A stretch of 64,000 bases of DNA, from the NCBI GenBank assembly GCA_963575745.1, contig CAUYUJ010017904.1, positions 546,961 to 610,960 of the forward strand, read 5' to 3'. Made by a program: the position numbers and the translations under genes. This document shows positions 3,244 to 63,118 of this stretch, in pieces; position 1 is the first letter of the stretch; every line of letters starts with the position of its first letter. This stretch comes from Prorocentrum cordatum. Its lineage: Eukaryota; Sar; Dinophyceae; Prorocentrales; Prorocentraceae. Under the pieces are notes generated by a model. That model was not told the origin of the DNA and searched no databases. It saw only the letters and a program-made list of their open reading frames with translations.

Positions 3244-5635
3244 TCCACACCTGTCGCCAAGAGAGTTGGCTGGGCAGTTACTGGCGTTTCTGCGAAGCCC
3301 CTCGGGACAGGGCCCAGATACGTGAGTGTATATATGCGGGGTTCCCATATTTCGTCCCTCCCCCCTCCTTCCGTTGCAACTTCGGGAGGCCTCGTTCGTC
3401 ATGTGAACTGCTGTCCTTTCTGGTGCCCGACGTATGTTCGACGCGGATTCGACGCAAGACCGACGTGGATTTTACACAGATCCGACGCGGATTCGGCAAG
3501 GTCGACGTGAATCCGACGCGGATAGTGGCGCGATGGGAATGACAAGGCCCCCTGAAAATGCAACATAATCTTCATTCCCTCCACTTGTGCATTCTGAGCG
3601 AAATCGGCTAAGTATGAAAGTCGCGCTGAAGGCGGAGATTCTGCTGGGCCCGGGGTGGGCACATGAAGAAGGGCGAGGAGGATGACGATCCCACTGCAGT
3701 GTTAGTTGTCAGTGCGCGGAGGACCTTCCGCATGCCAACAGCTCAAGTGGCGATGCGCCAGCTGAGGACCCTGGGGCCCAAGAAAAGTCGACAAAGGATG
3801 TTCCCCCCCCCTCCTCCCCTCCGCTCCCGTTTCAGAGCGAAAACACCCATAACGCTGCTCGTCCTGGAGTCCTGGAGAGCCCTCGTCACCACTGCTGGCT
3901 CACCGTCGAACTTCTGGTCGGAACGTGCCCCTTGAGAGGTCCTGGGAGTAAGCAGCGGTATGGGATTTTTTAATTCCCCCATTTGTCGACACTGTCGTTG
4001 AAACACTCGCCTCCCTGCCCCCCAGACCTTCCCCCCCTCCAGCCGTCACCCTTCCTCTTTTTTCTGCACCCTCCAGTCCCCCACCGTGCACACCCGTCCA
4101 TTTCCCAGTCTGAAGTTCTCCTCCGACTCCCCTGGGAGGAAGCAGGAGGACCTATGATGATGGATATGGTGATGAATCTGATGGGGGAAGAGGACGTCGA
4201 GGAGGAGCAGAAGAAGGACAAGCTGGAATACGCACATGCAGCAACATCGAACTAACAAGAGGAGGAGCGATCGGAAGGTCGCAATGAGGACGATAAATAT
4301 ATGGTGGAGGTTGAGGCGGAGGAGTTGGAAGAGGGGGCGCAGGCGCAGGAGGATGAACATCTAGAGGACGATGAGGAGGAGGCGCAGGCGGAGGTAGAGG
4401 CTGAGGAGGAGGAGGAGGAAGAGCAGCCCCGGCGCTCTTGGCCCTTCCCATCCGCGTTCCCCTTCTCGACCCCCGCGAGACAGTGTACCGGTGCAACACC
4501 GTGCACGGCACGAGGACCAGCTTCGACTACCCAGCGCCGACAGGCTTCTGCCCCGACCCGGCGGACCCCGAGGTCTGCGGCGGGAGGAGGGCCCCGCGCC
4601 CGCCGCCCCGAAGCCGTCCAGGGGCACCGCAGGCTCTGCGGGCGCCGCGGCCGGAGGGGCGGCCCGCGGGGGGGCCGCGGGCTGTGGCGCGGCGGCAGCC
4701 GGAGGGCGAGGCCGAGGGAGGCGGGGGTGACAGGCGGCGGAGGGGCCTCGGGGCCACCGGCATTTGGCCTTCGGCGGGGCCCCTTTCGTCGCCACGGCCA
4801 GACGCGGTTGTGAACATGTGTGCGGACGGACCCCATGGGGGGGCCTGGGGACCGACTGCGAGCCTATTTTGAGTTCCATGTGTCTCAACTCGCCCTTCGC
4901 CGTGGTAGGTGGGAGTAGGGGACTGCACTTCCATATTGAGGTATCCAACGGGGAGGGGGGGAAGACGGCAATTGGCCGATCAGGATGATAACTTTGCTTC
5001 ACTGGCAGAGATGTCGAGCCCCCTCCAAAAAATAAGATTGCCCTTCGGCCTGGTACCTCAGGGAGAGGAGGAGTAGGCGGAGTCGGAGGAGGCGGAGGAG
5101 GAGGCGGTTACGTTTACCGAATGCCTGAAGGACCCACATATCCGCATCGACATTACAATATCGAATTAGATCCTACGCAGAGCTCTGCCCCGCCATTCAA
5201 CTCGTGGCAACGCGAGCTGCAGCGTCCCACCGAGCGAACGGGAGGCCTCCCGACGGCCCCCTCACAGGCGCACCGCCTTGAGTAAGAGGTGGTGATCGTA
5301 AAGCTTAGGCAGAACGGCGCACAGTGAGAAGACGCGGGGACCGACTGGCGCAGCACGCAACTCTAACGCACTAGAGTCCCATCTAAGATTCGATCGTCGT
5401 CAGCTGTCAGCCGCTCCCAGGTGCGGAGGAGCAGGCGGAGGAGGACGAGCCGCAGCAGCAGCAGCAGAAGCAGCAGAATGAGCACACGCAGGCGGGGGGG
5501 GATGGGCTTGTATTCCACCGCCGCCATCAGTTGGAGGGGGGAGGGACGTGGAGGATGAGGCGGAGAACCCCCTGCCCCTCAAATGATGGTGGTGGCGTTG
5601 GAAAACAAGCCCACCGGGGGCGGGGAAGCTTCATC
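3244..5635. other. mostly unassigned; acidic-repeat DNA and one candidate exon
   Basis: 3440-3535 contains a short run of GACGCGGATT-type repeats. 4140-4430 is GGA/GAG-rich and can be read as a Glu-rich peptide, which is compositional. Apart from the candidate exon at 4482-4578, nothing is recognised. Confidence 0.4.
4482..4578 (+). CDS. candidate exon, function unknown
   Basis: A coding-like stretch reading YRCNTVHGTRTSFDYP, then a Pro- and Asp-containing segment and VCGG. It follows a pyrimidine-rich tract (4438-4475) and an AG that could be a 3' splice site. Residue composition is balanced, unlike the surrounding repeat-driven frames. I do not recognise the family. No neighbouring exon in a compatible frame was identified, so chance cannot be excluded. 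Confidence 0.2.
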
Positions 5636-5765
5636 TTGGCATCGCTCGGACGTGTGCGTTTTTTTCCTCGGCGAGGACCATCGAGGAGCATCCTTGATCA
5701 CTTCGCGAAAAAAACACGCACGAAACCAAACAAAACACAGGGAATGGACGTCCGAGCGATGGCGA
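5636..5765 (+). mobile_element. family B short inverted-repeat element, copy 1
   Basis: About 130 bp. The left end TTGGCATCGCTCGGACGTG is the inverse of the right end, which reads in reverse complement TCGCCATCGCTCGGACGTC. The interior has CATCGAGGAGCATCCTTGATCA and an A-rich stretch. Four further copies are at 19372, 34318, 51721 and 62896. Confidence 0.85.
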
Positions 5766-6031
5766 GTCATCGAGGCTTGGGCCAGCCCGCTGGGTGGCTC
5801 CGCGCCCTGCGGCCCCCTCCCGGGGGGGCGCGAAGGGGGCCGGCGGATTCCTCCGCAGGGCGAGCACGAGGCTGGGGAGCGTCGGCAGCGCAGGGCTCGG
5901 CGTCGTCGGGCTCGGCAGGGGCAGGAGCCTCCTGTCGGAGGGGGTGGGGGGGGGGGACGAATCGAGCAGTGGCGAAGCGTCCAGGCTTACCGAAAGGCCC
6001 ACCCCAAAGAATGTTCTAAGAGCATTTTGTC
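5766..6031. other. GC-rich spacer, nothing recognised
   Basis: Contains G-rich runs. The end (6009-6030) carries AATGTTCTAAGAGCATTTTG, which is nearly repeated at 6219-6239 on the far side of the family C element. Confidence 0.4.
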
Positions 6032-6196
6032 GGGGGTGGACAGACCTCCTACCCTGACACGTCGATTAAGGAATTGGCCGTTTTCGGTTCGCGAGAGGGC
6101 GTCGCGGCCGTCACTTTCGCGGGTCCGGCTCCGTCGGTTTCGGTACCAGGCCGTTTTCACTAAGGGGAGGTCTACTAAAGGGAGGTCTGTCCACCG
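6032..6196 (+). mobile_element. family C short inverted-repeat element, copy 1
   Basis: The termini GGGGGTGGACAGACCTCC and GGAGGTCTGTCCACC are inverted repeats about 165 bp apart. The interior shares GACACGTCGATTA and CCGTTTTCGGTTC with copy 2 at 6559. The flanks are near-identical 20-bp direct repeats (6009-6029 and 6219-6239), possibly a long target duplication. Confidence 0.8.
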
Positions 6197-6558
6197 CCGA
6201 ATTATGTGGTCTGCACGAGATGTTCTTAGAGCATTTCTGGCCGAGACTGTCTCGTTTACGTTCCTTTTGGTATTTGAACACTTCGGGGATCTAGGATCAT
6301 GTCATGGTTGGCCTATTAGGAATGCCGGGACGGTCGGCCCTGCTCGAAACGAGGAGGAGGAGGAGGGGGCGACGAGAGGGGGACGGGCGGGGCAATGCCA
6401 GGGGGGAATAGGCTCGACGGCCGAGGTCTGCTGACGTCTGCGTCGGTTCCCGGTGGCTTCCCCGCCTCGGGGTGCCTTCCAGCGGCTGCGCCTCGCCGAG
6501 AGCGTCCTGGGGGTGCCCAGCCCGTCCCGAACGGCCGAGGAAACCGGAGGCATGGCTC

Positions 6559-6725
6559 GGGGGTGGACAGAACCCCCAACAGCGACACGTCGATTAGTGA
6601 ATTGTCCGTTTTCGGTTCTCGAGAGGGCGTCGTGGCCGCTATTTTCCAGGTCTGCGCCCGCCAGGTTTGGGCCTCAGGTCGTCCTCACTAAGCCACGTTT
6701 TACGAAAGGGCGGTCTGCCCATCCC
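6559..6725 (+). mobile_element. family C short inverted-repeat element, copy 2
   Basis: Begins GGGGTGGACAGA and ends with the approximate inverse (GGTCTGCCCATCCCC). It shares GACACGTCGATTA, GAGAGGGCGTCG and TCACTAAG with copy 1, in the same orientation and about 360 bp away. Confidence 0.8.
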
Positions 6726-7660
6726 CGAATGGCCCGAACACCAAGGGGCAACGTTAGGGGCCCACGGGGGCCGCCTCGGCCCCCAGTCACCCCATTCGTC
6801 GCCGAGGAGGGGCCCGATAGCCCGCCCCGCCCGGGAACGAAAGGATGCGCCATCGCGGGCCACTCGCCGATCTGTCGGCGGTCTCTTCTGCCGAGCTCAG
6901 GTCGAGGTTTCCCGCCCGAGCTGCTTCCCGCCCCCGCCCCCCCCGAATGGTGCCCCTCAGTGGGGCAAGGCGGGGGACGGGCGGGATGCGGAGCGGACGA
7001 GGAGAGTCAGGGAACCGCAACCATGGATTTCGGCGCGTGGATGAGCGACGGGTCCCGTTGCGGTACGGAATCGGCGCGGGTGGTTGCCAATTTAGATGGC
7101 AGTCGTGTCATGATTCCAGTCGTACTTTCCCCGACCCGTGGATCTGGTGCCCACGCGCCAGATCCGCCGATCCCCGGGGAGAGGAGGACGGGAAAGGGAG
7201 AGAATGAAGAGTGCGGACATGGGAAGGACACGAGGTAAGCTAGGATGAGCGAGGGGAGAAGGGAGGCGAAGCGGAGGAGGACAGGAGGAAAGGAACAAGG
7301 AGGCAGAATCAGGGAAGAGGATGATGATGAGGTGAATGGATGATATCAGGAGGAAGAAGGAGGAAGTGGAGGAGGAAGAGGAGGAGGAACGCAGGAGGAG
7401 TTGGAGGAGCAGGACGAGCAGGAGGAGCAGGAGGAGGAGGAGGAGGTAGGAGGGGGTGAGTAGGATGTGTGAGGGGGGCTGGAGGCACTTTGTAAGATGG
7501 GGCGGGAGGAAGCAAGAAGAGGAGGACGGGTGTGGCAGGGGGGAGGATGGAGGTGGGACGGATGAAGGAGGTTGAGACAGGTGGGAGGAGCAGCAAGGAA
7601 TGCAACGGCACAGCGGGCGCTGCGGCTGATCACTGGGTTCGCCAGTTGCAAGGCAAGACG
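6726..7660. other. unassigned; GGA-rich tract 7240-7580
   Basis: 6726-7240 is GC-rich with open frames but no recognised domain. 7240-7580 is purine-rich GGA/GAA DNA on the plus strand, giving Ser/Leu/Pro-rich artefactual frames on the other strand. Confidence 0.4.
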
Positions 7661-19932: not shown

Positions 19933-20070
19933 AATGGGGGATGGGGAGAGGGTCTGTTGTCCGAGGCTCGAGATCTGTGCTGTCTCGCGTGCGCACGGTC
20001 GCCGGTGTCGTGGAGGGTCTCCTCGTTCTGAGCGTGCTTCGCCGCCCGCGGCGTCCTGCTCCCCCACCCC

Positions 20071-20221
20071 TCGGGAGGGAACAAAAGCACACAGACACAA
20101 TGAATCATTCAATTCCCCAGGAAGTATGGGGAGCATATGGGAAGTGGGTGGGGATAAAATTCTGGAAATATGGTGAATCCTGTTATTTGTGTGTGTATTG
20201 ATTTGTGTGTCGCAGGGCCCC
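20071..20221 (+). mobile_element. family A element, copy 1
   Basis: GGGAGGGAACAAAAGCACAC at the left, GGGAAGTGGGTGGGGA in the middle and TTTGTGTGTGTATTGATTTG then GTGTGTCG at the right. The ACACACA-rich left end and GTGTGT-rich right end are imperfect inverted repeats. Confidence 0.85.
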
Positions 20222-20784
20222 GTCCACCCCCCCCGCGCCCCACCACTGCCCTTGGGCCGACTTCGGCTGCGAGGCATTCCTCGCCTGTGTATACCGCTCC
20301 TTCGAATCTCTACGTGTTCGGGGTGTTTCCATCTTCTGGTCGCGCTCCAGCGGCTGTCCCTCTGCTGATCACCTTCAGGAGGGGGCGGGGGAAGGGGCGG
20401 GATGAGGGAGGGGGGTAGATGAGGGAAGGTGTACGAGCAAGGAGGAGGAAGAAGTTGATATTGAAGCAGAAGGCGGAGGATGTTGAAATGATGATGATGC
20501 TGATGATAATGAAGATGATGATGATGATGATCAGAATGCTGATACTGACGCTGATGAGGATGAGGAGAAGGAGGTGGTGGTGGTGGTGCTCAGTTGGGGG
20601 CCATCAGTCTGTCATCCTGCAGCTGAGCGTGGCCCCTCCGTTGAATATGGAGGCTGGGCCGCCTGCAAAGCAGCAGGCCGCCACGGCATGAGGCGACGCG
20701 GCGGTGCAAAGACTGCGCGCGATGCCCCGTCGGCGAGGAAGATCCCGCGGGGGATATGAAGAAGAGGAGGGAGGAGACAAAGCC
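20222..20784. other. unassigned; GATGAT-rich segment 20485-20580
   Basis: Contains ATGATGATGAAG-type repeats. 20590-20760 lies beyond the LINE 3' end and shows no gene. Confidence 0.4.
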
Positions 20785-21835: not shown

Positions 21836-23305
21836 TGCCCTCTTCACTCTCCACGACATCCTCGTCCCCGCAGTCTCGATCGGCAGCCTCCACCACCGAG
21901 TGTGGTCCTGGCAAGTGCTGTCGGACGTGCTCCTGAAAGCTCTCGAAGTTTTGAGCCGAGAAAGCACATACGCGGCAACTCAAGTCATCGGGGACCTGCA
22001 CTTCGTGGCTCCACTTCGAGTGATCTACGAAGCACTTTCCAAACCTCAAGGCTGCCCTGCGACCATGGTCCAAGGCACCTGCTCTATTCACGAAACAGCT
22101 TCTGCACCAGGGGCACTGGTTTGTGATGATAATCTTACTCAATAGAGGTGTCACACCGTGTGCCTCACGACGATGGGCGATAAGGCCTGTTGCACTCAAA
22201 AACCTTTTGCCACAGGTCGTTTTTTCTCCTCCCTCCTCCTCCTTCGTGTGATCACACCAATAGGGTCTGTAGTACTCCTCCATCGCCTGCTCCTCCTCCT
22301 CCTCTATATCAGGTGACACCTCCCCGTACCTCTCGACTGCATTCAAGTACGACGGGTCCGTTTGCAGAAACCTGTCGTTCTCTGGGCTCCCTCGTTTCAA
22401 TATGCTGATATCGTCGCTTCTCGCATGGTACCACTCGGCGAACTCGGGGTCGACGGAAGCCAAATGATCGAGGTCGGACACGAATTGTTTAGCCCAGGGG
22501 GTCGACTCGCTGTGCACTCTGAAGTCTTCGGATAATCTGGGAGCCTGGTCCATCCAAGCTGTGCCAAACACCGCAGCTACCACCGCCTGATGATCATCTG
22601 GATACTTCGCCCAGCGGAGGTAATTTCGAATCCTTCGTACTCTCAACTGTGTAGCACATCTAGGTATCTGCCATGCTCTGAAAACAAACTTCGTGGACCT
22701 GCACCTCCTCTCCCCCTCCTCCGTCACCCAGCTCATCTCTCCTTTAGATAGCACCCTCAAAAACTTCCCCAGGGTCTGGTCTAGGATGCTGACAAACTTA
22801 TCAGGGATGACGAAGGCAGATAATCCACTAAGAGCGGCTTCCACTACGAAGGCCTGAAACATCGCCCGTCGTATACATTTAGCTGTGGAGGACGTCCAGA
22901 AGCACCCGCATTGTCGCCAAGCCTGTCTGGCAGCTTGACTTCTCCTGAGTACCTCGCTCAACATGCCCTGCTCACTCGGTAAATGCGGACCTAATACACG
23001 CATCTCTCGAAGGGCTTGACCCTTCAGCTCTTTACTACGTCTCAAGCGGCGTGTAGTCTGGTAGTGTCGAGCCCCCCGTAGATCGAGTAGATGGTTAGTT
23101 TTGCTGGGGTTGAGCGTCCACTGCCCTTTGGCCAAGCAACTTTCCAACCTAGATGTGCTGCCGTTCAGTATCTCGGTGACCTTAGCCGCCGATGCCCCCT
23201 CCTCAATGACCGTGCTCTTCGTAATGTCGTCCATGAACACACTCAATTGGGTATCTATAGGGGGTAGGTCAGGGTGACGAGGATCTGTGGTAAAGAACCA
23301 TCTCC
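21830..23305 (-). pseudogene. LINE protein, reverse transcriptase motif C, thumb and zinc fingers (second register)
   Basis: Begins with GRWFFTTDPRHPD, then LSVFMDDITKS, where FMDD is the catalytic motif C of reverse transcriptase. The thumb region carries NPSKTNHL and GPHLPSEQ. Three finger-like motifs follow: CGKRFLSATGLIAHRREAH, CPWCRSCFVNRAGALDHGRR and CRVCAFSAQNFESFQEHVRQ plus H. Such fingers after the polymerase are known in several LINE clades and probably bind nucleic acid. A Glu-rich stretch (SPDIEEEEEQAMEEYYRPY) precedes the fingers. The reading continues from the endonuclease/polymerase segment after a minus-one change near 23300. Confidence 0.85.
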
Positions 23306-25930
23306 CATCCTCCACTCCTCCACCTCCTTGTTGTATGTATTGATAAAATCTCTGGGAGCTGTAGTAAATCCCATCTGAGTACCTGTGGTGGACCTGATAT
23401 CTAATGTACCGTCTGACGTCTCCATGGTCATCGTCTGTTGTCTCACCGTCGCGATAGCAAATGGTACGTCCTCGGGGCATGCATGTTCCTCTGCTTGGAT
23501 CTCAAGACGTTCTCTTTCTGTCGCTGCGAAAGCATTGGTACAATCGTAGTTGCTCACGATGAGACTCTTCTTATTGCACTCCGCCCTCCACTTGTTACAC
23601 ATGATGATGGTGATGATGCTCTCTCTGCTTCTGTGTGCTATCCCCCCCTGTGCCCATGTAGGCGTCCATACTTTCTGTGCTCGGTAGGGTATCCCCGAGT
23701 GCCAGGCCATGGAGAATGCATCATAGCAGTGCATGATGCGCTTGCCACTTATGTTGTTTTTGCCATTTGCCTTGTCACTCGAGAAGCTCAGGGACCTGTA
23801 ACTGCAGAGGGGCATGGCTTGACACCGACGGATGTGTACTAAATAATCCTGCAGCACCTTCTCAAACGCGTACGTTTCGGCGCACAACTCCGTACTCCCC
23901 AAGCCTGCCCTTTCCTCCCGACGAAACTGCCACAAGTCGCCCACCGGCGGCTCCTCTGGCGGTCGAGCGGCGCCGTCAGGTCCAGGCGCCCCGAGTCCCT
24001 CTCCCCTGGTCCACCCCATCTTCTCCAGTAGCCTCCTGCCCACTCGGTACGTAAACTCCGCAGTGAATCTCTCCATCTCCTCCTCCTCCTCCATTTTTTC
24101 AGCATGTCTAATCTGCCTTTGTTCATTCAACTCGCTCAACTTATTAGGAGACTCCATGTTGACATTCGGCTGCAATAGTAACCACACTGCTTCTGTGGGG
24201 AGGCCCCAGCTGGGATAAGCACGTCTTTTTGCCGCCCTGCGGCAATATCTGAGCATCGAACGTCGGTCTTTCTGTACTAGATGGAGAAGGTCAGCATCAA
24301 CATAGGCAAGTTCGTAGTCTTCACAGTCGTACCTATAATGACTGAGCTCGTCGTTCCAGTTTATAGCTACACCTGCCAATCCTCCATCCTTTGCCGCCTT
24401 CCCCAACTCCTCCTCCCATGTCCTGTTGTTCCATCCTGTTCTGGGGCTGTAATAATACCGACGCTTGGGCCCCCTCCCGTTGCCCTGGTAGAGTACTCTC
24501 AATTTGTGCATGTCCGAATAGCGTTGTTCCACATAAGCGTTCCAAATCTGGCTTGCGAGATCCGCTCTCTTCCGAAGGAGGTACTGCTTTCTGATCTTTT
24601 TCATGCATGCTGTGATTTCCTTAAGATCCTCGCAGACGTCCAAAAACTCCTCCTCCCCCTTGCAGTCCACCATCTTCTCCCTCAGCTCCCTCCTCCTGCC
24701 CAACATGTGCATGCGGTACGCGCGCATGTGCTCGTACACGTTGTCAACGTACAGGGGCTGCTCTGGGAACGTGTCTAGTAGAGCCTGTCTCACACACAGG
24801 CCGAAGATGCCCCAATATGCGTCTGGTGATTTTTGCAGAAGAGCTTTTTGGAAAGAGTCTTCTCCTACCTCCGATAGGTTCTTGTCAACATTCTCGAAGA
24901 AGTCTCTCCTCTTGTAGCCTCTGGTCAAACATCTCATCAGGGCACTGCGGTCTGGGCGCTCTTCTTTTTGCCTCTTACTTCGATGATGGAAAAGACTGAC
25001 ATCCAAGTCGAGACCAACAGGGACGTGATCTCGATGGCCTCGTGCTTTGATCGTTTGCAACCTTTTTCCAGCTGTCGTAAGTGCTGCACACGCTCGTAGC
25101 TGGTGTCTTGCATTGACTGGGAACGCTATGTGATCGATACGGCTTTGTCCACCAGTGGGGCCGAAAAAGGTGTCGTTGACTTTACTGCTGGCCGATGCTA
25201 TGAATAACTGGTTGCGCTCGCAGAACTCTCTGAACTCGAGACCGTTCTGGTTCTCAAGTTTCGGGCGATGGCCTCCTAAGCTGATACTCTTCGTAGTGTG
25301 GACGCTGCCGTCGCGGTCTCGAGAGAGACCGAAGTCCGAGTTGACGTCACCACCTACGATACTGTTGGTCCTCACCCCCAGCTTGTCTATCTGGTCATCC
25401 AACCACTTAGTTATTTTACGAGCTATCTCACCATGTCGTTGCACCGAGGTGGGGGCAAAATATACACCGAAAATCGCCGTGTCGATCTGTGCTGTCTGCA
25501 GTCGGATGCCTGCTACTCTACCTTGGAGTTCCGAGGGGGGTCTCATCACCGTGTGGAGGGACTGCGTGGGCAGGTTGCTTTTGACAAGAAAACTGACCCC
25601 ACACGCCGTGCTCGTCAACCTGCCCTTCTTATAACCAAGCTGCACTCCCCAATGGTGTCCGAAATGGTGCTGCTGTGCTGGCTGGTCTTCGAGGGCACGA
25701 TTGCTCGTACCGGTGAGGATGATGACTTCCCAGTCCTTTAATGCAGTACTGATGTCAATGATCCTATCGTGGTACGCGGCGTGCATGGGGTTGTAGGTGG
25801 CCACGCGCATGCTGTCGTACGTGCCGTACGTGCCGCTCACCACGATGTGCTGCGCGCGCCACGCATGCCACCCCTCCCTTCCCCGCGGCCCCCTGCCCTG
25901 CTGCGGCCCCGCGACTAAACGCGGTAGCAC
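23295..25930 (-). pseudogene. LINE protein, endonuclease and reverse transcriptase motifs A-B (first register)
   Basis: Counting from 25930, residues 42-310 are an apurinic-type (EEP) endonuclease: ATYNPM (about 44-49), GGDVNSDFG (193-201), SRIDHIAF (263-270) and GHRDHVPVG (298-306). The usual catalytic Glu after the first strand is not obvious, since the segment reads ILTGTSNRA (71-79). Residues about 640-880 are the start of the reverse transcriptase: GGIAHRSRESIITI, then motif A SNYDCTNAF (Asp at about 796) and motif B GTQMGFTTAPRDF (850-862). The frame ends at 23255 before motif C, which lies in the other register, so this copy would need frameshifting or is broken. The codon at 25930 is GTG and the frame is open beyond it, so the true start is not fixed. 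Confidence 0.9.
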
Positions 25931-26144
25931 GTCGGGCTCGCCTCGCGCGCCGAAATCCCCCCCCGCGCTGCGAAACGGCGGCTGAGGAGAAGGAGGAGGA
26001 GGAGGAGGAGGTGGACGAGGATCGGAAAAGGTTAGAGGATGAGTAAGATGGGAACGAGGAAGATGAGTAGGAGGAAAAATATGGAGGAGGTGGAGGAGGA
26101 TCTGACGGTGGGGGCAGGAGGCGGAGCAGAGGGATGCATGATAC

Positions 26145-26310
26145 GGACTAGGAGGAGGACGAGGAGGAGGTTGAGGAGGAGGAGGAGGAGGAGGAGGAGG
26201 CGTTCGAGGAGGAGGAGGAGGAGGAGGAGGAGGAGGAGGAGGAGGAGTCGGTGGAGGCGTTCGAGGAGGAGGAGGAGGAGGAGGAGGAGGAGGAGGAGGA
26301 GGAGAGCCAA
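26145..26310 (+). repeat. (GGA)n microsatellite tract 1
   Basis: GAGGAGGAGG with two interruptions reading GGCGTTCGAGGAGG. Confidence 0.95.
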
Positions 26311-26599
26311 ATTGGTCCGCTCACGCATCGTCGAGAGGATCTTCCCGTTCCTTTCCTCGTCTTGGCTCCCCACCGTCCCTCTCCCCCCGATCCTGTCCCC
26401 ATCCCCTCCCCTCTCGGGTACATGCCGACATCAAACAGATCTCGACGGATCTCGCTCGTGGGCGCCAGATCCACGGATCGTGGGAGGCACCCACCGACAC
26501 GTGAGGCCAGTGCCGCCCGATCTTGCGACGGAGCACACCGATGCCGTACGGAAGCGGGGCCCGTTCCCAATCCACGCGTCGTTAGTCCATGTTTGCGCT

Positions 26600-30272: not shown

Positions 30273-31375
30273 AATTTGGTGGTCCGGGCCATTTCGCCTG
30301 ATACATCCTCGCAACTCTCGTTTGTGAGTTGTCCGGGATTGGGCGTTTCGCGTCAGACATCCTCCAAACTCTGAGTTCCCAGATGCCGCGCAAGAGGTAG
30401 TCCGGCCCGTTTCGCCTGAGACATTCTCGCAACTCTGAGCTCCCATATGCCGCGCGAGAGGTGGGTCGGCCCGTTTCGCTTGAGACATCCTCTAAACTCT
30501 GAGCCCCGAGATGCCGCCCAAGAGGTGGTCCAGCCCGTTTCACTTGAGACATCCTCTCGCTTTTGCATTCGGATCTGCCGCGCGAGAGGTGGTCCAGCCC
30601 GTTTCATTTGAGACGTCTTCCAAACTCTGAGCTCTGAGATGCCGCGCGAGAGGTGGTCTGGCCCGTTTCGCTTGAGACATCCTCGAAATTGTGAGGTCTG
30701 AGCTGCCGCGCAAGAGGTGGTCCAGCCCATTTCGCCTGAGACATCCTCGCAACTCTGACCTCGGAGATGCCGCGCGCGACGTGGTCCAGCCCGTTTCGCC
30801 TGAGACATCCTCGCAACTCTGAGCTCTGAGATGCCCTGCGCGAGGTGATCCTGCCCGTCCCGCCTGAGACATCAACGCAACTCTGAACTCTGAGATGCCG
30901 TGCGCAAGGTGGTCGGGCCCGTTTCGCACAAGACATTCTCGCAACTCTGAGCTCCCAGATGCCGCGCAAGAGGTAGTCCAGCCTTGGGGCCCAGAAGACC
31001 ACATGTTACATATGCCCCTGGGACCCTGGGAGTCCCAGGAGGCCCATGAGAGAGGCCCCCGCAACTCTGAGCTCTGAGACGCCGCGCTCGAGGTGGTCCA
31101 GCCCGTCTCGCCTGAGACTTCCTCGCGACACGTTTCGCCCGAGACATCGTCGCAACTCTAGGGTCCGAGATGCCGCGCGCGAGGTGGTCCAGCCCGTTAC
31201 GCTGGAGACATCCTCGCAACTCTGGGCTCAGAGATGCCCTGCGCGAAGTGGTCCAGTCCGTCTCGCCTGAGACATCCTCGCAACTCTGAGCTCTGAGATG
31301 CCGTGCGCGAGATGGTCGGGCCCGTTTCGCACAAGACATTCTCGCAACTCTGAGCTCCCAGATGCCGGCCCAGAA
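30273..31375 (-). repeat. 64-bp minisatellite, about 17 units
   Basis: The unit begins ATGCCGCGCGAGAGGTGG, then CCAGCCCGTTTCGCCTGAGA, then CATCCTCGCAACTCTGAG. Since 64 is not a multiple of three, the open frames across it change register each unit and are not coding. Near 30985 and 31368 the array is interrupted by the same CCAGAAGACCACATGTTACA insert. Confidence 0.9.
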
Positions 31376-31439
31376 GACCACATGTTACATATGCCCCTGG
31401 GACCCTGGGAGCCCCAGGAGACCCCAGAGAGCTTCAGGA

Positions 31440-31740
31440 GGCTGCTGGACGCCCAGGACAGGCCCCAGGGGTCCACAGGAGATTCCCAGGAAGCTCCCAG
31501 GAGGCCCCAGGAGGCCCCCTATCAGAACGTGTCAAGTTAATACACATCCGGTGCCGATTCGATGATTGTTCCTGCTCCTGTGGCCCCCCCCCCGTTCGGG
31601 GGGGCCCGACGGTCACATGCATGTTATATATCCCCACCTGGGAGCCCCAAGAGGCTTCAGGAAGCCCCAGGTGGGGTCCAGGAGGCCACAGGAGGCCCAG
31701 GAGGAAGCCCCAGGAGGTCCCCAGGAAGCCCCAGGAGGCC
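31440..31740 (+). repeat. CCCAGGAGGC array between minisatellite blocks
   Basis: CCCCAGGAGGCC and CCCAGGAAGC words, with a short C/G-run hairpin at 31583-31612 (GGCCCCCCCC then GGGGGGGCCC). Confidence 0.75.
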
Positions 31741-31744
31741 CCAC

Positions 31745-31940
31745 GATGCCCCCGCAACTCGGAGCTCTGAGACGCCGCGCTCGACGTGGTCCAGCCCGTC
31801 TCGCCTGAGACTTCCTCGCAGCACGTTTCGCCCGAGACATCGTCGCAACTCTAGGGTCCGAGATGCCGCGCGCGAGGTGGTCCAGCCCGTTACGCTGGAG
31901 ACATTTTCGCAACTCTGGGCTCCGAGATGCCGTTCGGGAT
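31745..31940 (-). repeat. minisatellite block 2, a segmental copy of 31057-31240
   Basis: The sequence matches 31057-31240 almost base for base (GACTTCCTCGC, CATCGTCGCAACTCTAGGGT and CGTTACGCTGGAGACAT in the same order), so a 190-bp segment of the array was duplicated about 690 bp away. Confidence 0.85.
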
Positions 31941-33850: not shown

Positions 33851-34317
33851 TTGATCGTCGCTCACTTGAGACAGGAGTCCGCCTGCCCAACAGCGGCCTC
33901 TTGTCCGTGCTGGACAACAGTTGCAATTGGGCATCGTGCTAGCCGACGCAGCCATCCCCACCCGGGGGCGATTGCACCTGGGGGGGCAGCCAACCTCAGG
34001 GGCCTCACATCACACGTGTCTCTTCGAGCGCGTATTCACGGGACCGCGTTTCCACAAGATGTGGGCATGCTCGGCGATCGTGACCCTGCCTGCTCCTCCT
34101 GCCAGTGCTGTGGCGGTCCGTGACCCCTCGGTGGTCGGCGGCACGGTGCTGCAATCGTCGCCTCGCGTCGCCACGCTGGGATTCCCACGGCGTGCGCTGC
34201 AGTCTTCGGGGCGGCCGGGGCCGCTGTCGTGCACGGCCGTCGGCTGCGGCCGGGGGTGTGCCCTCCCTGCCTCCCGCAGGAGTCCCGAGGGCCCGCCCCG
34301 CACCCGAGCACGCCTGC

Positions 34318-34446
34318 TTGGCATCGCTCGGACGTGTGCGTTTCTTCCTCGGCGCGGACCATCGAGGAGCATCCTTGATCATTTGGCGAAAAAGCCACGC
34401 GCGAAACCGAAAAAAACACAGGGAATGGACGTCCGAGCGATGGCCA
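34318..34446 (+). mobile_element. family B short inverted-repeat element, copy 3, with target duplication
   Basis: Left end TTGGCATCGCTCGGACGTG, right end in reverse complement TGGCCATCGCTCGGACGTC. The hexamer GCCTGC flanks both ends exactly (34312-34317 and 34447-34452), a likely target-site duplication. Confidence 0.85.
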
Positions 34447-35090
34447 GCCTGCACCCGCGGCCTGCGCTGTCCCACCGCAGGCCGCCCAGGATGCCGGGCA
34501 CGGCCGCAGACATCCGGGCCGGGCGAAAGGGGGGGATTGGGAAAGGGGGGGTTACGAAATTTGCTGCATGCAGCTGGTTTCGGCCTCACCGAGGGGCCCA
34601 TTCCTCGAGACATGGCCGCCTCCGGCGCCGGGAGGCGCCGGGAAAGTCAGCTACGTGAGCTGATTCTCAAGCCCCCCTTTTGCCATTCCCCCCTTTCGCC
34701 CGACTCGAGACATCTGGCGTCTCGAGCTTTCCGAGACGCGGCCCCCCGACCGTTCCCTCGAGGTCCTGGCGTCTCGACGTCTTCGAGCCGGGCGGGTTCG
34801 CCGTTCTGCTGGCCCCGGGACACTCACGGATCGATCCGGCTCGAAAGATGGCGGAGGGAGATGGGGTTTAGGGCTCTGGGCGTGATTTTTACGATGCCGT
34901 GTTTTTGTTTGCCATGTAGGATCTCAGGGTCGACCACTTTCCCGGAACCAGTTTCTCATCCCAAGCCGCTTTCCAAAGGTCCCGAGGCCCAGCAGGGGTT
35001 CCCAGAGGGCGAGCACTAGGAAAGGCCTCGGTCTCGATGTTTGCGAGACGACGCCAGGACGTCTTGGTTCGCGCCGCTGCACGTCCTCGC
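34447..35090. other. unassigned sequence
   Basis: 34680-34830 has GGCGTCTCGA words repeated three times. No gene seen. Confidence 0.3.
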
Positions 35091-37150: not shown

Positions 37151-37161
37151 CGACACATCTT

Positions 37162-37327
37162 TCAGGAGGGACAAAAACACGCAGACACAATTCATCGACG
37201 ATTCCCTAGAGCATCTGGGAAAATATAGGAAGCGGGGGGGGGAAGACGAACATCCGAAAAATATGAGAAGATATGGGGAGTCCTGGGGTTTGTGCGTTTT
37301 TATTGGTGTGTCCCAGGGTCCCTTCAA
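37162..37327 (+). mobile_element. family A element, copy 2
   Basis: TCAGGAGGGACAAAAACACG at the left; GGAAAATATAGGAAGCGG in the middle; GTGTGTCCCAGGGTCCCTTC at the right. It directly follows composite repeat copy 3. Confidence 0.85.
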
Positions 37328-41408: not shown

Positions 41409-41563
41409 TGGGGGGCCACATGCGAACCCTACCCCTGCCCCCCACGATTTCTGAGGGGGAGGGTGGGGATCACTTCGTTCGGGACCTCCCGAGCGAAGTG
41501 AACCCCACCCTCCCCCTTAGAAATCGTGGGGGGGTAGGGGTAGCGTTCGCACGTGGCCTCCTA
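41409..41563. mobile_element. foldback element, about 145 bp, with visible empty site
   Basis: 41414-41558 is one long inverted repeat: arms of about 70 bp, starting GGCCACATGCGAACCCTACC, continuing CACGATTTCTGAGGGGGAGG, and closing on TCGGGA/TCCCGA with a two-base loop. Only a handful of mismatches separate the arms. The related repeat at 42927-43072 reads straight from GCTAGTC into GCAGCGCGACCC, so this is an insertion. Confidence 0.85.
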
Positions 41564-42445: not shown

Positions 42446-42605
42446 TCAGGAGGGAAAACAACACAGGCACATTTAATCGTCGACTGCCCGGAAAATATAG
42501 GAAAATGTGGGAAGGGGGGGGAAGGCGAAAACCCAGAAAACATGGAAACATATGGGGAATCATTGAATCTGTGTGTATTTCTTTGTGTGTCCTTGGGCCC
42601 CTTGA
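42446..42605 (+). mobile_element. family A element, copy 3
   Basis: TCAGGAGGGAAAACAACAC to TTTGTGTGTCCTTGGGCCCC. A coding-like frame opens immediately after it (42606) behind a CTGGCAG acceptor-like sequence. Confidence 0.85.
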
Positions 42606-43154: not shown

Positions 43155-43300
43155 TCAGGAGGGAAAAAAACACACAGATTCCCAGGAAAATATGGGAAAA
43201 TATGGGAATTGGGGGGGAAGACAAAAACCCAGAAAATATGAGAAAATATGGGGACTATTTTTATTTGTGTGTATTTATTTGTGTGTCCTAATTTCCCTTT
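43155..43300 (+). mobile_element. family A element, copy 4
   Basis: TCAGGAGGGAAAAAAACAC to TTTGTGTGTATTTATTTGTG. The middle has the full GGGAAAATATGGGAATTGGG. It lacks the ACAATTAATCGTCG stretch found in other copies. Confidence 0.85.
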
Positions 43301-43954: not shown

Positions 43955-44179
43955 AGAGCCCCGAACCATCAGGGGTAACTCGGGCCAGGGCTAACTCGGG
44001 TTCGCTTTTCGGGATTCCGAGCCCGAGTTGCCCCGGGCCCGGGTTACCCCGCATAACTCGGGCGTCCAGAGCCCCAAATCATCGGGTAACTCGGGTCAGG
44101 GCTATCACGGGCTCGTTTCTCGGGAATCCAAGCCCGAGTTATCCCGGGCCCGAGTTGCCCCGGACAACTCGGGCGCCCA
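43955..44179 (+). repeat. 113-bp tandem duplication with internal hairpins
   Basis: 43955-44067 and 44068-44179 both run AGAGCCCC, GTAACTCGGG, CAGGGCTA, then CCCGAGTT, CCCGGGCCCG and AACTCGGGCG. CCCGAGTT and AACTCGGG pair, so each copy can fold. Confidence 0.85.
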
Positions 44180-51015: not shown

Positions 51016-51395
51016 GTACACACATGGTCCCAGTGAAATCACTACTATTGATGGTTGCACTACCTGCCTTGATGTTGTGTTCTCTAGTGGCCTTCGGCCC
51101 ATAACGCCATCGTGCCTGGGTTGTCGGTCCGAGGCCTCGGATATCTATGAGCATCTCCTGGGAGGCCTCTCGGAAGCCTTTTCGATGTGGTGTTTGATGT
51201 GTTTTGATGCGTCTCGGAACTCCTCTCTGGGCCTCTTGGGGCCTTGAGGCCCTGGTGGGCCTTCTTGGAGCCTCTGGGGGGCACCTCGGGGACTCTGTGG
51301 ATGCCTTGGGGCCATTCTTCGGTGAGCCCCCATCTCGGGCGTCCAAGACTGGTCCAGGCGGCGCCCAGAAGGGCCCTCGGGACGGGCTTCTGAGC

Positions 51396-51532
51396 GAGGG
51401 CTGGGCCCAAACGCTGTTCTGCTGGACTTCGGCGGTAATATGTTGTTCGTTTTTTTTTTTTTTTTTTTTCCTCAGGAGGGTTCAGGAGAATAGGAACATC
51501 ACAACGAAAAGCAACGTTTAGGTCCAGCCCTG
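51396..51532. mobile_element. family F (introner-type) element, second copy
   Basis: Left GAGGGCTGGGCCCAAACGCT; right in reverse complement CAGGGCTGGACCTAAACGTT. These ends match those of the intron at 52318-52461 (CAGGGGTCGACCTAAAC) in layout, and both share AACGAAAAGCA or CACGAAAAGCA before the right end. 137 bp, with an internal poly-T run at about 51450. Confidence 0.65.
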
Positions 51533-51682
51533 CTCTGGGCCGACTCGTGCCATGCTGGACGCGCATGTCCGGAACAGCGCGCCCTTAGCCTGTTGAGCAG
51601 CGCGCGCGCGCGGGAGCGCCCAAGAGCGCCCGGTGCTCTGGGCTGTGGGCCTTTTCTCGAACATAGCTCGCGGTGTGATGAC

Positions 51683-51881
51683 AGGGAGCCCCACGCAGAC
51701 CCGCGGACACTCCATTTCGCTTGGCATCGCTCGGACGTGTGCGTTTTTTCCTCGGCGAGGAAGGACATCGAGGAGCATCCTTGATCATTTGGCGAAAAAG
51801 CCACACACGAAACCGAAAAAAAACATGGAATGGACGCCCGAGCGATGGCCAGGGAGCCCCACGCAGACCTGAGGACACTCC
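51683..51881 (+). repeat. 31-bp direct repeats flanking family B copy 4
   Basis: AGGGAGCCCCACGCAGACC then GGACACTCC at 51683-51713 and 51851-51881 match at 29 of 31 positions and enclose the family B element. Confidence 0.85.
51721..51850 (+). mobile_element. family B short inverted-repeat element, copy 4
   Basis: Left TTGGCATCGCTCGGACGTG; right in reverse complement TGGCCATCGCTCGGGCGTC. The interior has CATCGAGGAGCATCCTTGATC. Confidence 0.85.
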
Positions 51882-52069: not shown

Positions 52070-52312
52070 GAGCAGCTGCAGCGCTTCATCCGGTACCACA
52101 CCAACCCGCTGTTCAGCTGCCTCCGGCTCACGGCGGCCGTCAGCAAGCTGTGCAAGCGGAGCAGCCTGGCCCAGGACATCTGGCACGGCGAGCACGCGCG
52201 CCTGAAGCGGGCCGCGGTCCAGATCTTCGAGCTCCTGCCGCAGGACGCCTTCGACAGGATCTTCGAGAACACCGCGAAGCGCCAGACCTTCATGTCGCTG
52301 GCCTTCCACGAG
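52070..52312 (+). CDS. TRPM-like cation channel, exon with pre-membrane domain part 1
   Basis: Open frame reading LQRFIRYHTNPLFSCLRLTA, then AAVQIFELLPQDAFDRIF and TFMSLAFHE. A pyrimidine-rich tract (51945-52055) precedes several AGs at 52068-52081, one of which is the likely acceptor. The exact start is uncertain. The end is fixed at GAG (phase 0) because splicing there to 52468 restores an uninterrupted HEAAECLEMM. The pattern T-x3-LA-x2-A, continued in the next exon, matches the region just before the first membrane helix of TRPM channels. Expected product: a multi-pass cation channel; this part is cytosolic. The family match is by eye and moderate. Confidence 0.6.
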
Positions 52313-52467
52313 GCGGCCAGGGGTCGACCTAAACGGTGTTTGGGCGATTTTGTGGGCCGTTTTCGTTTCGACTTCGTTTTGCAGCAGAGGCGGATTGAAG
52401 GCAGAGCGAGGGAAAACGAAAACAACACGAACACGAAAAGCACTGTTGAGGTCGACCCCTGCACGAG
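52313..52467 (+). other. intron 1 of the channel gene, GC-AG, created by an introner
   Basis: 155 nt, donor GAG/GCGG and acceptor CACGAG/GCC. Both splice sites lie inside the two copies of the target duplication, so removal regenerates the uninterrupted coding sequence. The intron body is the inverted-repeat element at 52318-52461. Length is not a multiple of three, and retention shifts the frame. Confidence 0.8.
52318..52461. mobile_element. family F introner-type inverted-repeat element
   Basis: 144 bp. Left CAGGGGTCGACCTAAACGGT; right in reverse complement CAGGGGTCGACCTCAACAGT; 19 of the first 21 bases pair. The interior is TTTTCGTTTCGACTTCGTTTT then an A-rich GAAAACGAAAACAACACG. It has no coding capacity, so it would be moved by another element. 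Confidence 0.85.
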
Positions 52468-52592
52468 GCCGCCGAGTGCCTCGAGATGATGGACGCGCCG
52501 CGCTTCCAGGACTACCTGCGCACGCGGTGGAACGGCGCCCTGCCCCTGCTCGAGGACGTGCAGACGCCGGAGGACTACGTGGAGTACTGCAG
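52468..52592 (+). CDS. TRPM-like channel, exon with pre-membrane domain part 2
   Basis: 125 nt, phase 0 in and phase 2 out: AAECLEMMDAPRFQDYLRTR, WNGALPLLEDVQTPEDYVEY then C and the first two bases of an Arg codon. The R-F-x2-YL-x3-WNG-x-L segment corresponds in TRPM proteins to the F-x6-Q-x2-L-x3-W-x-G-x-L motif. Donor TGCAG/GCCAGC is again AG/GC. Balanced codon use and an open frame that stops soon after the donor support a real exon. Confidence 0.65.
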
Positions 52593-53104: not shown

Positions 53105-53291
53105 GTCTTGGCTCGATCCGAACACCCTCATATTCAGCCCGAAGCTGCGCGTGATGTTCCACGCGCTGTCTTTCGTGCTGTTCACTGTGTTCCTGCAGCT
53201 GCTGCCCTCAGATTTTTTCGTTGTCTGCACGCTACAGCCCAGCGCCACCCACATCCTGCTGTGGACCACGGTGTTGGGGCATGTGTTGCAG
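53105..53291 (+). CDS. TRPM-like channel, exon with membrane helices S1-S2
   Basis: Enters at phase 2 and joins the previous exon as EYCRSWLDPNTLIFSPKLRV. Then follow helix one, FHALSFVLFTVFLQLL, and helix two, HILLWTTVLGHVLQ. The F-x-SPKLRVMFH approach to a membrane helix parallels the APxVKF motif before S1 in TRPM channels. The exon end is set at TTGCAG/GCGGGG, the third AG/GC donor in this gene; a GT donor 9 bp later (GGGTCG/GTAC) is possible. No alternative soluble protein explains the hydrophobic pattern. Confidence 0.6.
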
Positions 53292-58275: not shown

Positions 58276-59222
58276 GCAGATGACGGAGGGCGCAGATGAC
58301 GAGGAAAAGGAGGCGCAGCAGAGAGCGCGAGGATAACATCCGCCGTGGCGAACAGGAAACCACGACGGGCAAGTTACATAGATTGTCGCGCGGGGGGGCT
58401 TACCGCCGGGCTAATTTTATCCTTTGGCGAGTCGCGGCTGTCACCGCCGTCCCCCCGCCCCACCCCTGTTAACGGTGACGAGCGTACGTGCGGGGAGGGC
58501 CTGGGACTTTCCAACCCCACCCCGTTTGTATCCGCTGCTTGCTGCCCCCGTGCGGGTGGCGCGGGCGTCGCCTCGCGCACCCGGGGGCTGGTGCTCGGGG
58601 TCGCGCTTGTGGGAGGAGGTCAGAGCCAGAACGCGCGGCGCCAGGCGCTGCCAATGTTTTGGGGGGCGTCCAATGGCTGGACATCGCCGCGCAGTATTGG
58701 CGATGACGCCGCACGCTGGCCACGCACACGTTGCACTGGAACTTGTTTTTGGTGAAGCATGGGCGATAACTGCCGTGATCGGTCCTTCCCCCCTCTCGGA
58801 CCACTCCACATCATATGTCACGTTTGCAAAGATGGCCTACGGATTTTCCGAACAGTTTTTCATAATGTTGGCGGCCTTTTTTCGTGATTGATCGTAATGT
58901 CCGAATTCCCACCCATCCCTCATCACCCCCGCTACCGCGAATAATAAGAAACTGGCTCTTGATCGGTACAATACGAAAATAATCCCATGGAAGAGCACAC
59001 AAGAAGCGGCTTGTCAACTACCTCGATGAAGCGGCATGTGAAAATTGGGGGGAACACCGCGGCCAGTGCCGCTTTCCTTACTTGGCGGCGGCGGGCTCAG
59101 AACGCGGCCGCGGCCGTCGCGCTTTCCGCCCAGGCGCCTCACAGATGACGTCTCGCCCCCCAGCCCCCGAGTTGCCCACCGTTCTGGGTCCAGCCGAACA
59201 CCCCCAATCGGAGATCAGAGTT
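58276..59222. other. unassigned sequence
   Basis: 58780-59040 is AT-richer. No gene or RNA recognised. Confidence 0.3.
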
Positions 59223-59375
59223 TGAAGGGGCCCTGGGACACACAAATAAATACACACAAATAAAAAGATTCCCCATATTTTCTGGGTTCTTGCCTTCCCC
59301 CTCACTCCCCATATTTTCCAACATTTTCTTGGGGATCGACGATTGATTGTGTCTGTGTGTTTTTGTCCCTCCTGA
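59223..59375 (-). mobile_element. family A element, copy 5 (inverted)
   Basis: Read on the minus strand it runs TCAGGAGGGACAAAAACAC to TTTGTGTGTCCCAGGGCCCC, the only minus-strand copy in the window. Confidence 0.9.
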
Positions 59376-59597: not shown

Positions 59598-59759
59598 CAG
59601 GAGGGAAAGAAACACACAGACACAATTAACTGTCGACTCCCAGGCAAATATGGGAAAATATGGGAAGTGGGGGGGAAGACAAAAACCAAGAAAATATAGA
59701 AAAAGATGGGGAATAATTTTCTTTGTGTGTATTTATTTGTGTGTCCTTGGGCCCCTTGA
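59598..59759 (+). mobile_element. family A element, copy 6
   Basis: CAGGAGGGAAAGAAACACAC to GTGTGTCCTTGGGCCCCTTG. It lies 220 bp from copy 5 in the opposite orientation, so the two could pair. Confidence 0.9.
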
Positions 59760-59761
59760 AA

Positions 59762-62310: not shown

Positions 62311-62895
62311 AAAGTAGGTATGTTTGGATTCCCAGATTCCAGTCTACTTCCAGCGCCTCCCTACTTCAATGATCGAGTGTCTTTACCTTTGCCGTCCTCC
62401 TTAGGGGGCGGGCGGACACCCGATCTACTCTCAATGCCCTCCTAATTCATGCTTCTACCTGCTTCTTCTGGCCGATGGGCACACTATCGGAGCTCCGCGC
62501 GGCTCCCTTCGATGGGAGGGAGGAGAAGCGACACCAACACCACCAGGGGGCCCACCTCCAGCGAGGAGGTCCACGAGGCCTCCCCGAGCTGGAGGCTGGG
62601 GATGTCTCGAGCGAGAGGGGGGGACCGAGACCCCAATGCTCCTCGCATCTCCTCGCCCTGGTGGTGTTGGTGTCGCCTTTTCTTGTTCCTCTTCGATCGG
62701 CGATGGGCGCCCGAGCCAGACGCAGCACCACCCGGCCCGTGCGCGAGCCTCTCCGCCTCGCGCTCCGCGCCCGCGCGCTCCGCTCCCGCGCGCGCGCGCG
62801 ATCGGAGTGTCGCCGAGACAGCGAGGCGCTGCTCGAGCCTGGAAGGGTATCGCTGCTCCTATTGGGCCCTCTCGTGGCTGCTGCTCCAGCGCCCC

Positions 62896-63024
62896 TCGGC
62901 ATCGCTCGGACGTTTGCATTTTTCCTTCGGCGAGGACAATCTATGAACATCCTTGATCACTGGGCGGAAAAACCACGCACGAAATTGAAAAAAACACTGG
63001 GAATGGACGTCCGAACGATGGCCA
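62896..63024 (+). mobile_element. family B short inverted-repeat element, copy 5
   Basis: Left TCGGCATCGCTCGGACGTT; right in reverse complement TGGCCATCGTTCGGACGTC. The interior has AACATCCTTGATCA and an A run. Confidence 0.85.
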
Positions 63025-63118
63025 GGGACGGCTTGGAGGCCACCAAGGGGGGCTCGCCCCCGACTTGGGGCGTCCCTTAAGCGGCAGCCGTCCGGCTGCA
63101 CTTCACGGCGGCCGCCGG

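What the first reader, a model, noticed from the sequence alone, without database searches (positions are those of the whole stretch)
52307..52472. An intron caught as an introner: inverted repeats, target duplication and both splice sites in the duplication
The 155-nt intron consists of a 144-bp element with 21-bp terminal inverted repeats (19 pairs) flanked by an 11-bp duplication with one mismatch. Splicing GAG/GC to AG/GCC inside the two duplicate copies restores HEAAECLEMM exactly. This directly shows how a transposable element became an intron without harm. Introners with inverted repeats are known in dinoflagellates; this family sequence is not one I can place.
Basis: partly seen in the sequence, partly recalled or inferred. 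Interest (0 to 1): 0.9.

Follow-up and report, generated by a model that had tools for sequence, protein, structure and literature searches.

The report
A jumping-DNA copy that became an intron
A 144-letter hairpin-shaped transposon appears to have landed inside an exon of a dinoflagellate gene and, because the stretch duplicated on landing holds both splice signals, it can be cut out of the message as an intron; some other copies of it sit in other genes in the same way, though most copies looked at are not in exons.

Summary
Confirmed, and placed. The element at 52318-52461 (144 bp, CAGGG...CCCTG ends) is flanked by an 11-12 bp duplication with one mismatch. Only one splice register gives an accepted donor (GC) with an AG acceptor, both inside the duplication (intron 52313-52467, 155 nt). 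The flanks read as one frame, GC3 = 1.0 on both sides. The whole element folds back on itself.

The window's assembly (4.13 Gb; fits Prorocentrum cordatum) holds a large family of it; 40 copies are 96-99% like the consensus. Of 100 copies analysed 65 have 8-bp duplications, with CAGGG ends: the hAT pattern. By a coding score 2 of 99 copies fetched by similarity are exonic (Rab1 and SAP-domain genes), besides the window copy; all three carry AG|G in the duplication on the coding strand. Strands with a spliceable duplication were exonic in 2 of 11 tests, the rest in 0 of 121 (p = 0.006; p = 0.035 at the laxest cut-off). AGGT-bearing copies include exonic ones in COMT-like, PPR and ion-channel genes.

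So: a non-autonomous hAT-like MITE, carrying no splice site, that becomes an intron where its target supplies one. The mechanism is known for introners; I found no description of this family in what I could read. No RNA data.

The parts
52070..52312 (+). Upstream exon (its start, ccccgag|GAG, is inferred), ends ...FHE
   Evidence: GC3 1.00 over 80 codons in one open frame; start by inference
52307..52317 (+). Left copy of the target duplication, CACGAGGCGGC (12 bp if 52318 is counted)
52313..52467 (+). Inferred 155-nt intron, GC donor, AG|G acceptor
   Evidence: only register of 18 with an accepted donor and AG acceptor; no RNA evidence
52318..52461 (+). 144-bp hAT-like MITE, full-length foldback
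   Evidence: family
52318..52341 (+). Left terminal inverted repeat (24 nt, 21 complementary)
52438..52461 (+). Right terminal inverted repeat
52462..52472 (+). Right copy of the target duplication, CACGAGGCCGC
52468..52592 (+). Downstream exon, AAECLEMMDAPRFQDY..., end TGCAG|GC inferred
   Evidence: GC3 1.00 over 41 codons; end read from the sequence, inferred
53105..53291 (+). Next exon (inferred), SWLDPNTLIFSPKLRVMFHALSFVLF..., end TTGCAG|GC inferred
   Evidence: open frame, GC3 0.82 over its best 40 codons; boundaries inferred from the sequence
51395..51532 (+). Older, diverged relative of the element, same orientation, upstream of the exons
   Evidence: alignment score 68 against a maximum of 39 in 2943 control stretches; no duplication recognised there

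Best explanation
A non-autonomous hAT-like MITE (144 bp, foldback, CAGGG ends) was inserted, by a transposase supplied elsewhere, into an exon, duplicating the target. The element carries no splice site of its own. The target held AG|GC, so its left copy now provides a GC donor and its right copy the AG|G acceptor; the spliceosome, which in dinoflagellates accepts GC, GT and GA donors, removes one duplication copy plus the element and leaves the protein unchanged. Copies landing in exons without AG|G on the coding strand would break the gene and be lost. Shown: anatomy, family, duplications, reading frames, exonic copies in conserved genes, and an association of exonic location with a spliceable duplication in a small sample. 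Inferred: splicing itself, a hAT transposase, selection as the filter, and that the hairpin helps by bringing the two sites together.
For: Anatomy. Coding signal on both sides. Family: 39 other copies at 84-90% to the query (40 scored of 4588 candidates); 40 at 96-99% to the consensus (40 scored of 2133). Duplication at exact ends in 100 copies: 8 bp exact 42, 8 bp with one mismatch 23, other lengths 8, none 27. hAT-type ends: PMC4298943 Table 1 prints CAGGGCTTCTTAAAC and CAGGGGTGGCCAACCT as Buster hAT TIRs (passages). Exonic copies: Rab1 (no gap in the three PDB alignments shown, best E 1.3e-40; three further Rab pieces beside it), SAP domain (E 1.1e-13), COMT (PDB E 4.8e-20), PPR (9.1e-18) and Ion_trans (1.6e-7). 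Spliceable duplication and exon location: 2 of 11 against 0 of 121 strand tests, p 0.006; 3 of 3 exonic copies, with the window copy judged on its 11-bp duplication, against 9 of 128 strand tests in copies not called exonic, p 6e-4. Splice types fit P. cordatum (GC donors 51.4%, AGG acceptors 79.7%; PMC10666404 passages).
Against: No transcript. No orthologue or paralogue without the intron was found. The window copy's duplication departs from the family's 8 bp. No autonomous hAT partner was looked at (did not complete). Few exonic copies. The coding score rests on base composition and its cut-off of 5 was set after seeing the scores; at a cut-off of 3 two non-spliceable strands (L088, L095) also pass, 2 of 121, p 0.035, and with the junction placed as L073 (4.7) and L095 (3.9) score on strands that are not spliceable. 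L027's score of 9.4 lies below the 99% quantile of random window positions (10.9), though its SAP match is independent. In the AGGT set 39 of 45 testable copies did not pass as exonic on the AGGT strand.
Confidence: 0.87

Rival explanations
1. The element is an unspliced insertion that has broken the gene; the AG|GC in the duplication is chance.
For: No RNA evidence; AGGT/AGGC/AGGA falls in 48 of 520 11-nt stretches of this gene's coding sequence, about 9%.
Against: The flanking exons keep GC3 of 1.00 and open frames although the duplication copies already differ at one base; the two exonic copies found by similarity both have a spliceable duplication and 0 of 121 other strands are exonic at the cut-off used (2 of 121 at the laxest).
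Confidence: 0.07
2. The MITE inserted into an intron that already existed at this site.
For: The published P. cordatum introns are enriched in elements with inverted repeats (PMC10666404, passages).
Against: The intron is one duplication copy plus the element and nothing else, and the duplication covers exon sequence on both sides up to the splice sites; the Rab1 and SAP copies have the same build.
Confidence: 0.03
3. The element belongs to another superfamily with longer duplications (for example Mutator-like), not hAT.
For: The window copy and L044 both show 11 bp with one mismatch. That Mutator-like elements make 9-11 bp duplications is recalled.
Against: 65 of 100 copies show 8-bp duplications, and the ends are of hAT type. 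Here an 8-bp CACGAGGC plus three extra bases is also possible. The hAT length of 8 is recalled.
Confidence: 0.12
4. Removal is not spliceosomal but depends on the hairpin, as proposed for Amoebophrya introners.
For: Strong full-length hairpin with the splice sites near its base; hairpin-based joining is discussed in PMC7789003 (passages).
Against: The sites fit the ordinary dinoflagellate pattern, and exonic copies go with AG|G.
Confidence: 0.05

Closest known systems
Introners with TIR and TSD in dinoflagellates (Symbiodinium microadriaticum in PMC9860276, section 7 read; Polarella in Roy et al. 2023, known to me only as cited in PMC11453091)
   Same: A short DNA element with TIRs creates an intron and the duplication supplies splice signal
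   Different: The Symbiodinium example has a 4-bp TSD and carries its own 3' splice site; here the TSD is mostly 8 bp and the element carries neither site
Florenciella introners (PMC9860276, Fig. 2E legend)
   Same: Neither splice site carried; both taken from the insertion site
   Different: Unrelated organism; the passage read gives no TIR, hairpin or hAT feature for it
Amoebophrya introner elements (PMC7789003, passages)
   Same: Inverted repeats that can form a hairpin joining exon boundaries; direct repeats at the boundaries
   Different: 3-5 nt direct repeats and highly variable non-canonical splice sites; here AG|G sites of ordinary dinoflagellate type
Introner elements counted in Prorocentrum cordatum (PMC10666404, passages)
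   Same: Probably the same genome; introns with inverted repeats near both ends
   Different: Found there by a generic pattern (8-20 nt inverted, 3-5 nt direct repeats within 30 bases of intron ends); the passages read describe no family, superfamily or 8-bp duplication; supplements not seen
hAT MITEs (Buster, PMC4298943, passages)
   Same: CAGGG-type ends, non-autonomous copies in numbers; the 8-bp duplication of hAT elements is recalled
   Different: Not reported as introns in the passages read; no transposase link shown here

Membership tests
Introner | Element forms an intron bounded by splice sites within a coding exon | tested here: met
   Single GC-AG register and continuous frame at the window; Rab1 and SAP copies. 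By sequence only; splicing not shown
Introner | Similar sequences form introns in several unrelated genes | tested here: met
   Window gene, Rab1, SAP, COMT-like, PPR, ion channel, by sequence
Introner | Copies biased to genes (expected of a dedicated introner; not part of the definition in the passages I read) | tested here: inconclusive
   2 of 99 copies fetched by similarity are exonic by my score; whether the others lie in introns of genes was not tested
Introner | Spliced in transcripts | not testable with these tools
   no RNA data
hAT-type MITE | 8-bp target duplication (recalled for hAT) | tested here: met
   65 of 100 copies, exact or one mismatch; the window copy itself shows 11-12
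hAT-type MITE | CAGGG-type terminal inverted repeats | tested here: met
   motif in print
hAT-type MITE | Autonomous partner with hAT transposase and the same ends | not tested
   PF05699 searches did not complete
hAT-type MITE | Short, many copies | tested here: met
   144 bp in 84 of 100 copies, the rest 141-148; 4588 first-look candidates, 40 scored

The most novel reading that the evidence does not exclude
An ordinary genome-wide hAT MITE with no splice signal of its own works as an intron factory: in a genome whose spliceosome accepts AG|GC, AG|GT and AG|GA, any exonic target containing AG|G on the coding strand turns into a silent intron, while the full-length hairpin brings the two sites together. 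Intron gain would then need no specialised introner, only a MITE, a permissive donor rule and purifying selection.
Probability: 0.55. Interest if true: 0.65.

Novelty: new member of a known kind. Interest (0 to 1): 0.55.

Why it matters
How new spliceosomal introns arise is a long-standing question. This family offers a natural experiment within one genome: thousands of candidate copies (4588 at first look), many with clean duplications, most of those examined outside exons as an internal control and a few inside conserved genes. It would let one measure how far the target's AG|G decides whether a transposon insertion breaks a gene or becomes an intron.

Tried and rejected
Dead ends. Homologues of the host gene: none in the protein database or genome contigs; only non-significant matches in PDB (best E 0.4) and Pfam (E 0.65). 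A paralogue in the own genome: none, only the gene's own two exons (8 of 8 candidates scored). The TIR pair as an exact pattern in viral contigs: none; one hit of a single end (L001) has no partner within 2 mismatches in that locus and I take it as chance. Rfam at gathering thresholds and ARAGORN on the window: none. The element against plasmids: no match.

Considered and rejected. Frame restoration as proof of splicing (it follows from any duplication). Mutator-like origin from the 11-bp duplication, once the family showed mostly 8 bp. The 44035-44151 candidate is part of a repeat of the GGGTAACTCGGG kind. L158 looks to me like an adenylation-domain tail but had no Pfam match and a score of 0.7, so it is not counted. 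L145 passed the score but is valine-rich and was not sent to Pfam; L125 and L157 passed the score without a Pfam match. The one antisense pass in the AGGT set, L120, also passes on the sense strand. One copy (L141 = L055) is in both the AGGT set and the similarity set.

Full report
Observation. The element, its ends and its duplication are as described. The 24-nt ends match at 21 positions, the outer 13 exactly. The duplication is 11 bp with one mismatch; base 52318 (C) can belong to the duplication or to the element, so 12 bp is equally possible. Of 18 registers printed, only one puts an accepted donor (GC) and an AG acceptor at the junctions, and both then lie inside the duplication. The inferred intron is 52313-52467, 155 nt. 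If kept, it shifts the frame and a stop follows soon after the element. In 60 local dinucleotide shuffles no pair of ends with at least 13 of 14 matches and a duplication score of 7 appeared; with 12 matches the mean was 0.12, at most 3.

Coding context. The left exon has GC3 of 1.00 over 80 codons and the right part 1.00 over 41 codons, in frames that fit if the 155 nt are removed; the element's frames have 0.46-0.60. The host gene is unidentified: no hit in the protein database or genome contigs, no significant one in PDB or Pfam, and in its own genome only its own exons match.

Shape. The element is a hairpin along its whole length: 108 of 144 bases pair, and with flanks it folds at -85.9 kcal/mol, z -8.5, 0 of 200 shuffles as good. 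The consensus search lists 80 matches: 40 on one strand at 96-99%, and 40 on the opposite strand of such places at 70-74%, over nearly the full length.

Family. The window's assembly has 4.128 Gb in 21,875 contigs; P. cordatum CCMP1329 has 4.15 Gb in 22,724 scaffolds and 59.7% GC (PMC10666404, passages), so I take it to be that species. The first search scored 40 of 4588 candidates: the window itself and 39 others at 84-90%. Copies at 96-99% to the consensus speak for recent activity. I fetched 99 copies (20, 19, 20, 20, 20): 39 like the window copy, 29 like the consensus, 31 like the exonic copy L048; 8 full-length hits and 3 partial ones were not fetched. With the window copy, 100 copies: 8-bp duplication exact 42, with one mismatch 23, 11 bp with one mismatch 2 (window and L044), other lengths 6, none recognised 27. 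CAGGG ends and 8 bp are the hAT pattern; the end motif is in print (PMC4298943, Table 1 passage), the 8 bp is recalled. A diverged relative lies at 51395-51532.

Exonic copies. I scored each copy, after removing element and one duplication copy, for codon-position composition through the junction on both strands. Among 3000 random window positions the 95% and 99% quantiles were 3.8 and 10.9; that control includes the window's real exons and triplet repeats. The window copy scored 23.3, L048 14.5, L027 9.4; next came L073 4.7 and L095 3.9, both on strands without a spliceable duplication. The cut-off of 5 was set after seeing this. L048 is a Rab1 gene: the joined protein aligns without gap to the three PDB chains shown (best E 1.3e-40), and three further Rab pieces lie beside it (query recalled). 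Its duplication AGGTACGT gives AG|GTACGT. L027 lies in a SAP domain (E 1.1e-13), duplication GCTGAAGG; there the donor's C is the element's first base.

Test of the mechanism. In the 66 copies fetched by similarity with a clean 8-bp duplication (at most one mismatch; one duplicate flank dropped; window copy left out), strands whose duplication holds usable AG|G were exonic in 2 of 11 cases, other strands in 0 of 121 (Fisher p 0.006). The result is the same at cut-offs 3.76, 5 and 9; at 3 it is 2 of 11 against 2 of 121, p 0.035. Counted the other way, 3 of 3 exonic copies are spliceable, the window copy being judged on its 11 bp, against 9 of 128 strand tests in copies not called exonic (p 6e-4; without the window copy 2 of 2, p 0.0066). 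A pattern search for AGGT before the element end gave 47 matches. Of 45 testable (one duplicate and one short flank dropped) 6 pass the score on the AGGT strand and 1 on the other, the same locus L120; 39 do not pass on the AGGT strand. Three of the six have recognisable domains: COMT-like (PDB E 4.8e-20; no gap at the junction in TLEVDP, though the alignment has gaps elsewhere), PPR (9.1e-18) and Ion_trans (1.6e-7). L125 and L157 have no Pfam match; L145 is low-complexity and was not sent. Because these copies were chosen for AGGT, they test exon location and strand, not the need for AG|G. The AGGC search gave 96 matches that I could not fetch.

Frequency. With 85,849 genes of 2798 bp CDS in 4.15 Gb (PMC10666404), about 6% of the genome is coding (my arithmetic). 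Two exonic copies in 99 is below that, as expected if most exonic insertions are lost; the numbers are too small to prove it, and the 99 are not a random sample. Non-exonic copies may lie in introns or between genes; I did not test which.

Comparison. The mechanism is known: PMC9860276 (section 7) reports introners with TIRs and TSDs and families that take both splice sites from the target (Florenciella); it gives 3-9 bp for duplications of earlier families. Dinoflagellate introners are reported for Symbiodinium (4-bp TSD, same section), Amoebophrya (PMC7789003, passages) and Polarella (Roy et al. 2023, seen only as cited in PMC11453091). My searches showed no description of this family or of a hAT origin for introners, but Roy et al. 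was not read and no supplements were. What is distinctive here is that few of the copies examined are exonic, that the element carries no splice site, and that the family offers its own control group.

Noticed in passing
41414-41558: Near-perfect 145-bp hairpin; with flanks -160.9 kcal/mol, z -20. Looks like a young foldback element; nature unknown.
   Followed up: partly
5635-5766, 34317-34447, 51720-51852, 62895-63025: Four copies of another ~132-bp TIR family (CTTGGCATCGCTCGG), 81-92% alike, with a 4-bp TCAT duplication at the first copy.
   Followed up: partly
42447-42605, 43177-43289, 37156-37327, 20070-20224, 59221-59374, 59598-59761: A ~160-bp repeat family in both orientations, ends such as CAGGAGGG and TTTGAAGGGGCCC.
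   Followed up: no
6030-6202 and 6557-6730: Two copies of a TIR element with TCGGGGGTGGACAG ends; the second has an ATGGC duplication.
   Followed up: no
23258-26320 (-): 1021-aa open frame with a G-patch match (E 5.6e-6) and a sub-threshold endonuclease/reverse-transcriptase match (E 0.0094).
   Followed up: no
30278-31939: Repeat array with an apparent ~64-bp period, 69-91% identity between aligned copies.
   Followed up: no
G000:C15098 107122, 114671, 122266, 129705: Four copies of the MITE at about 7.5-kb spacing, as in a tandemly repeated unit.
   Followed up: no
51682-51713 and 51850-51881: 32-bp direct repeat, 94% identical, around the 51720-51852 element; too long for an ordinary target duplication.
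   Followed up: no
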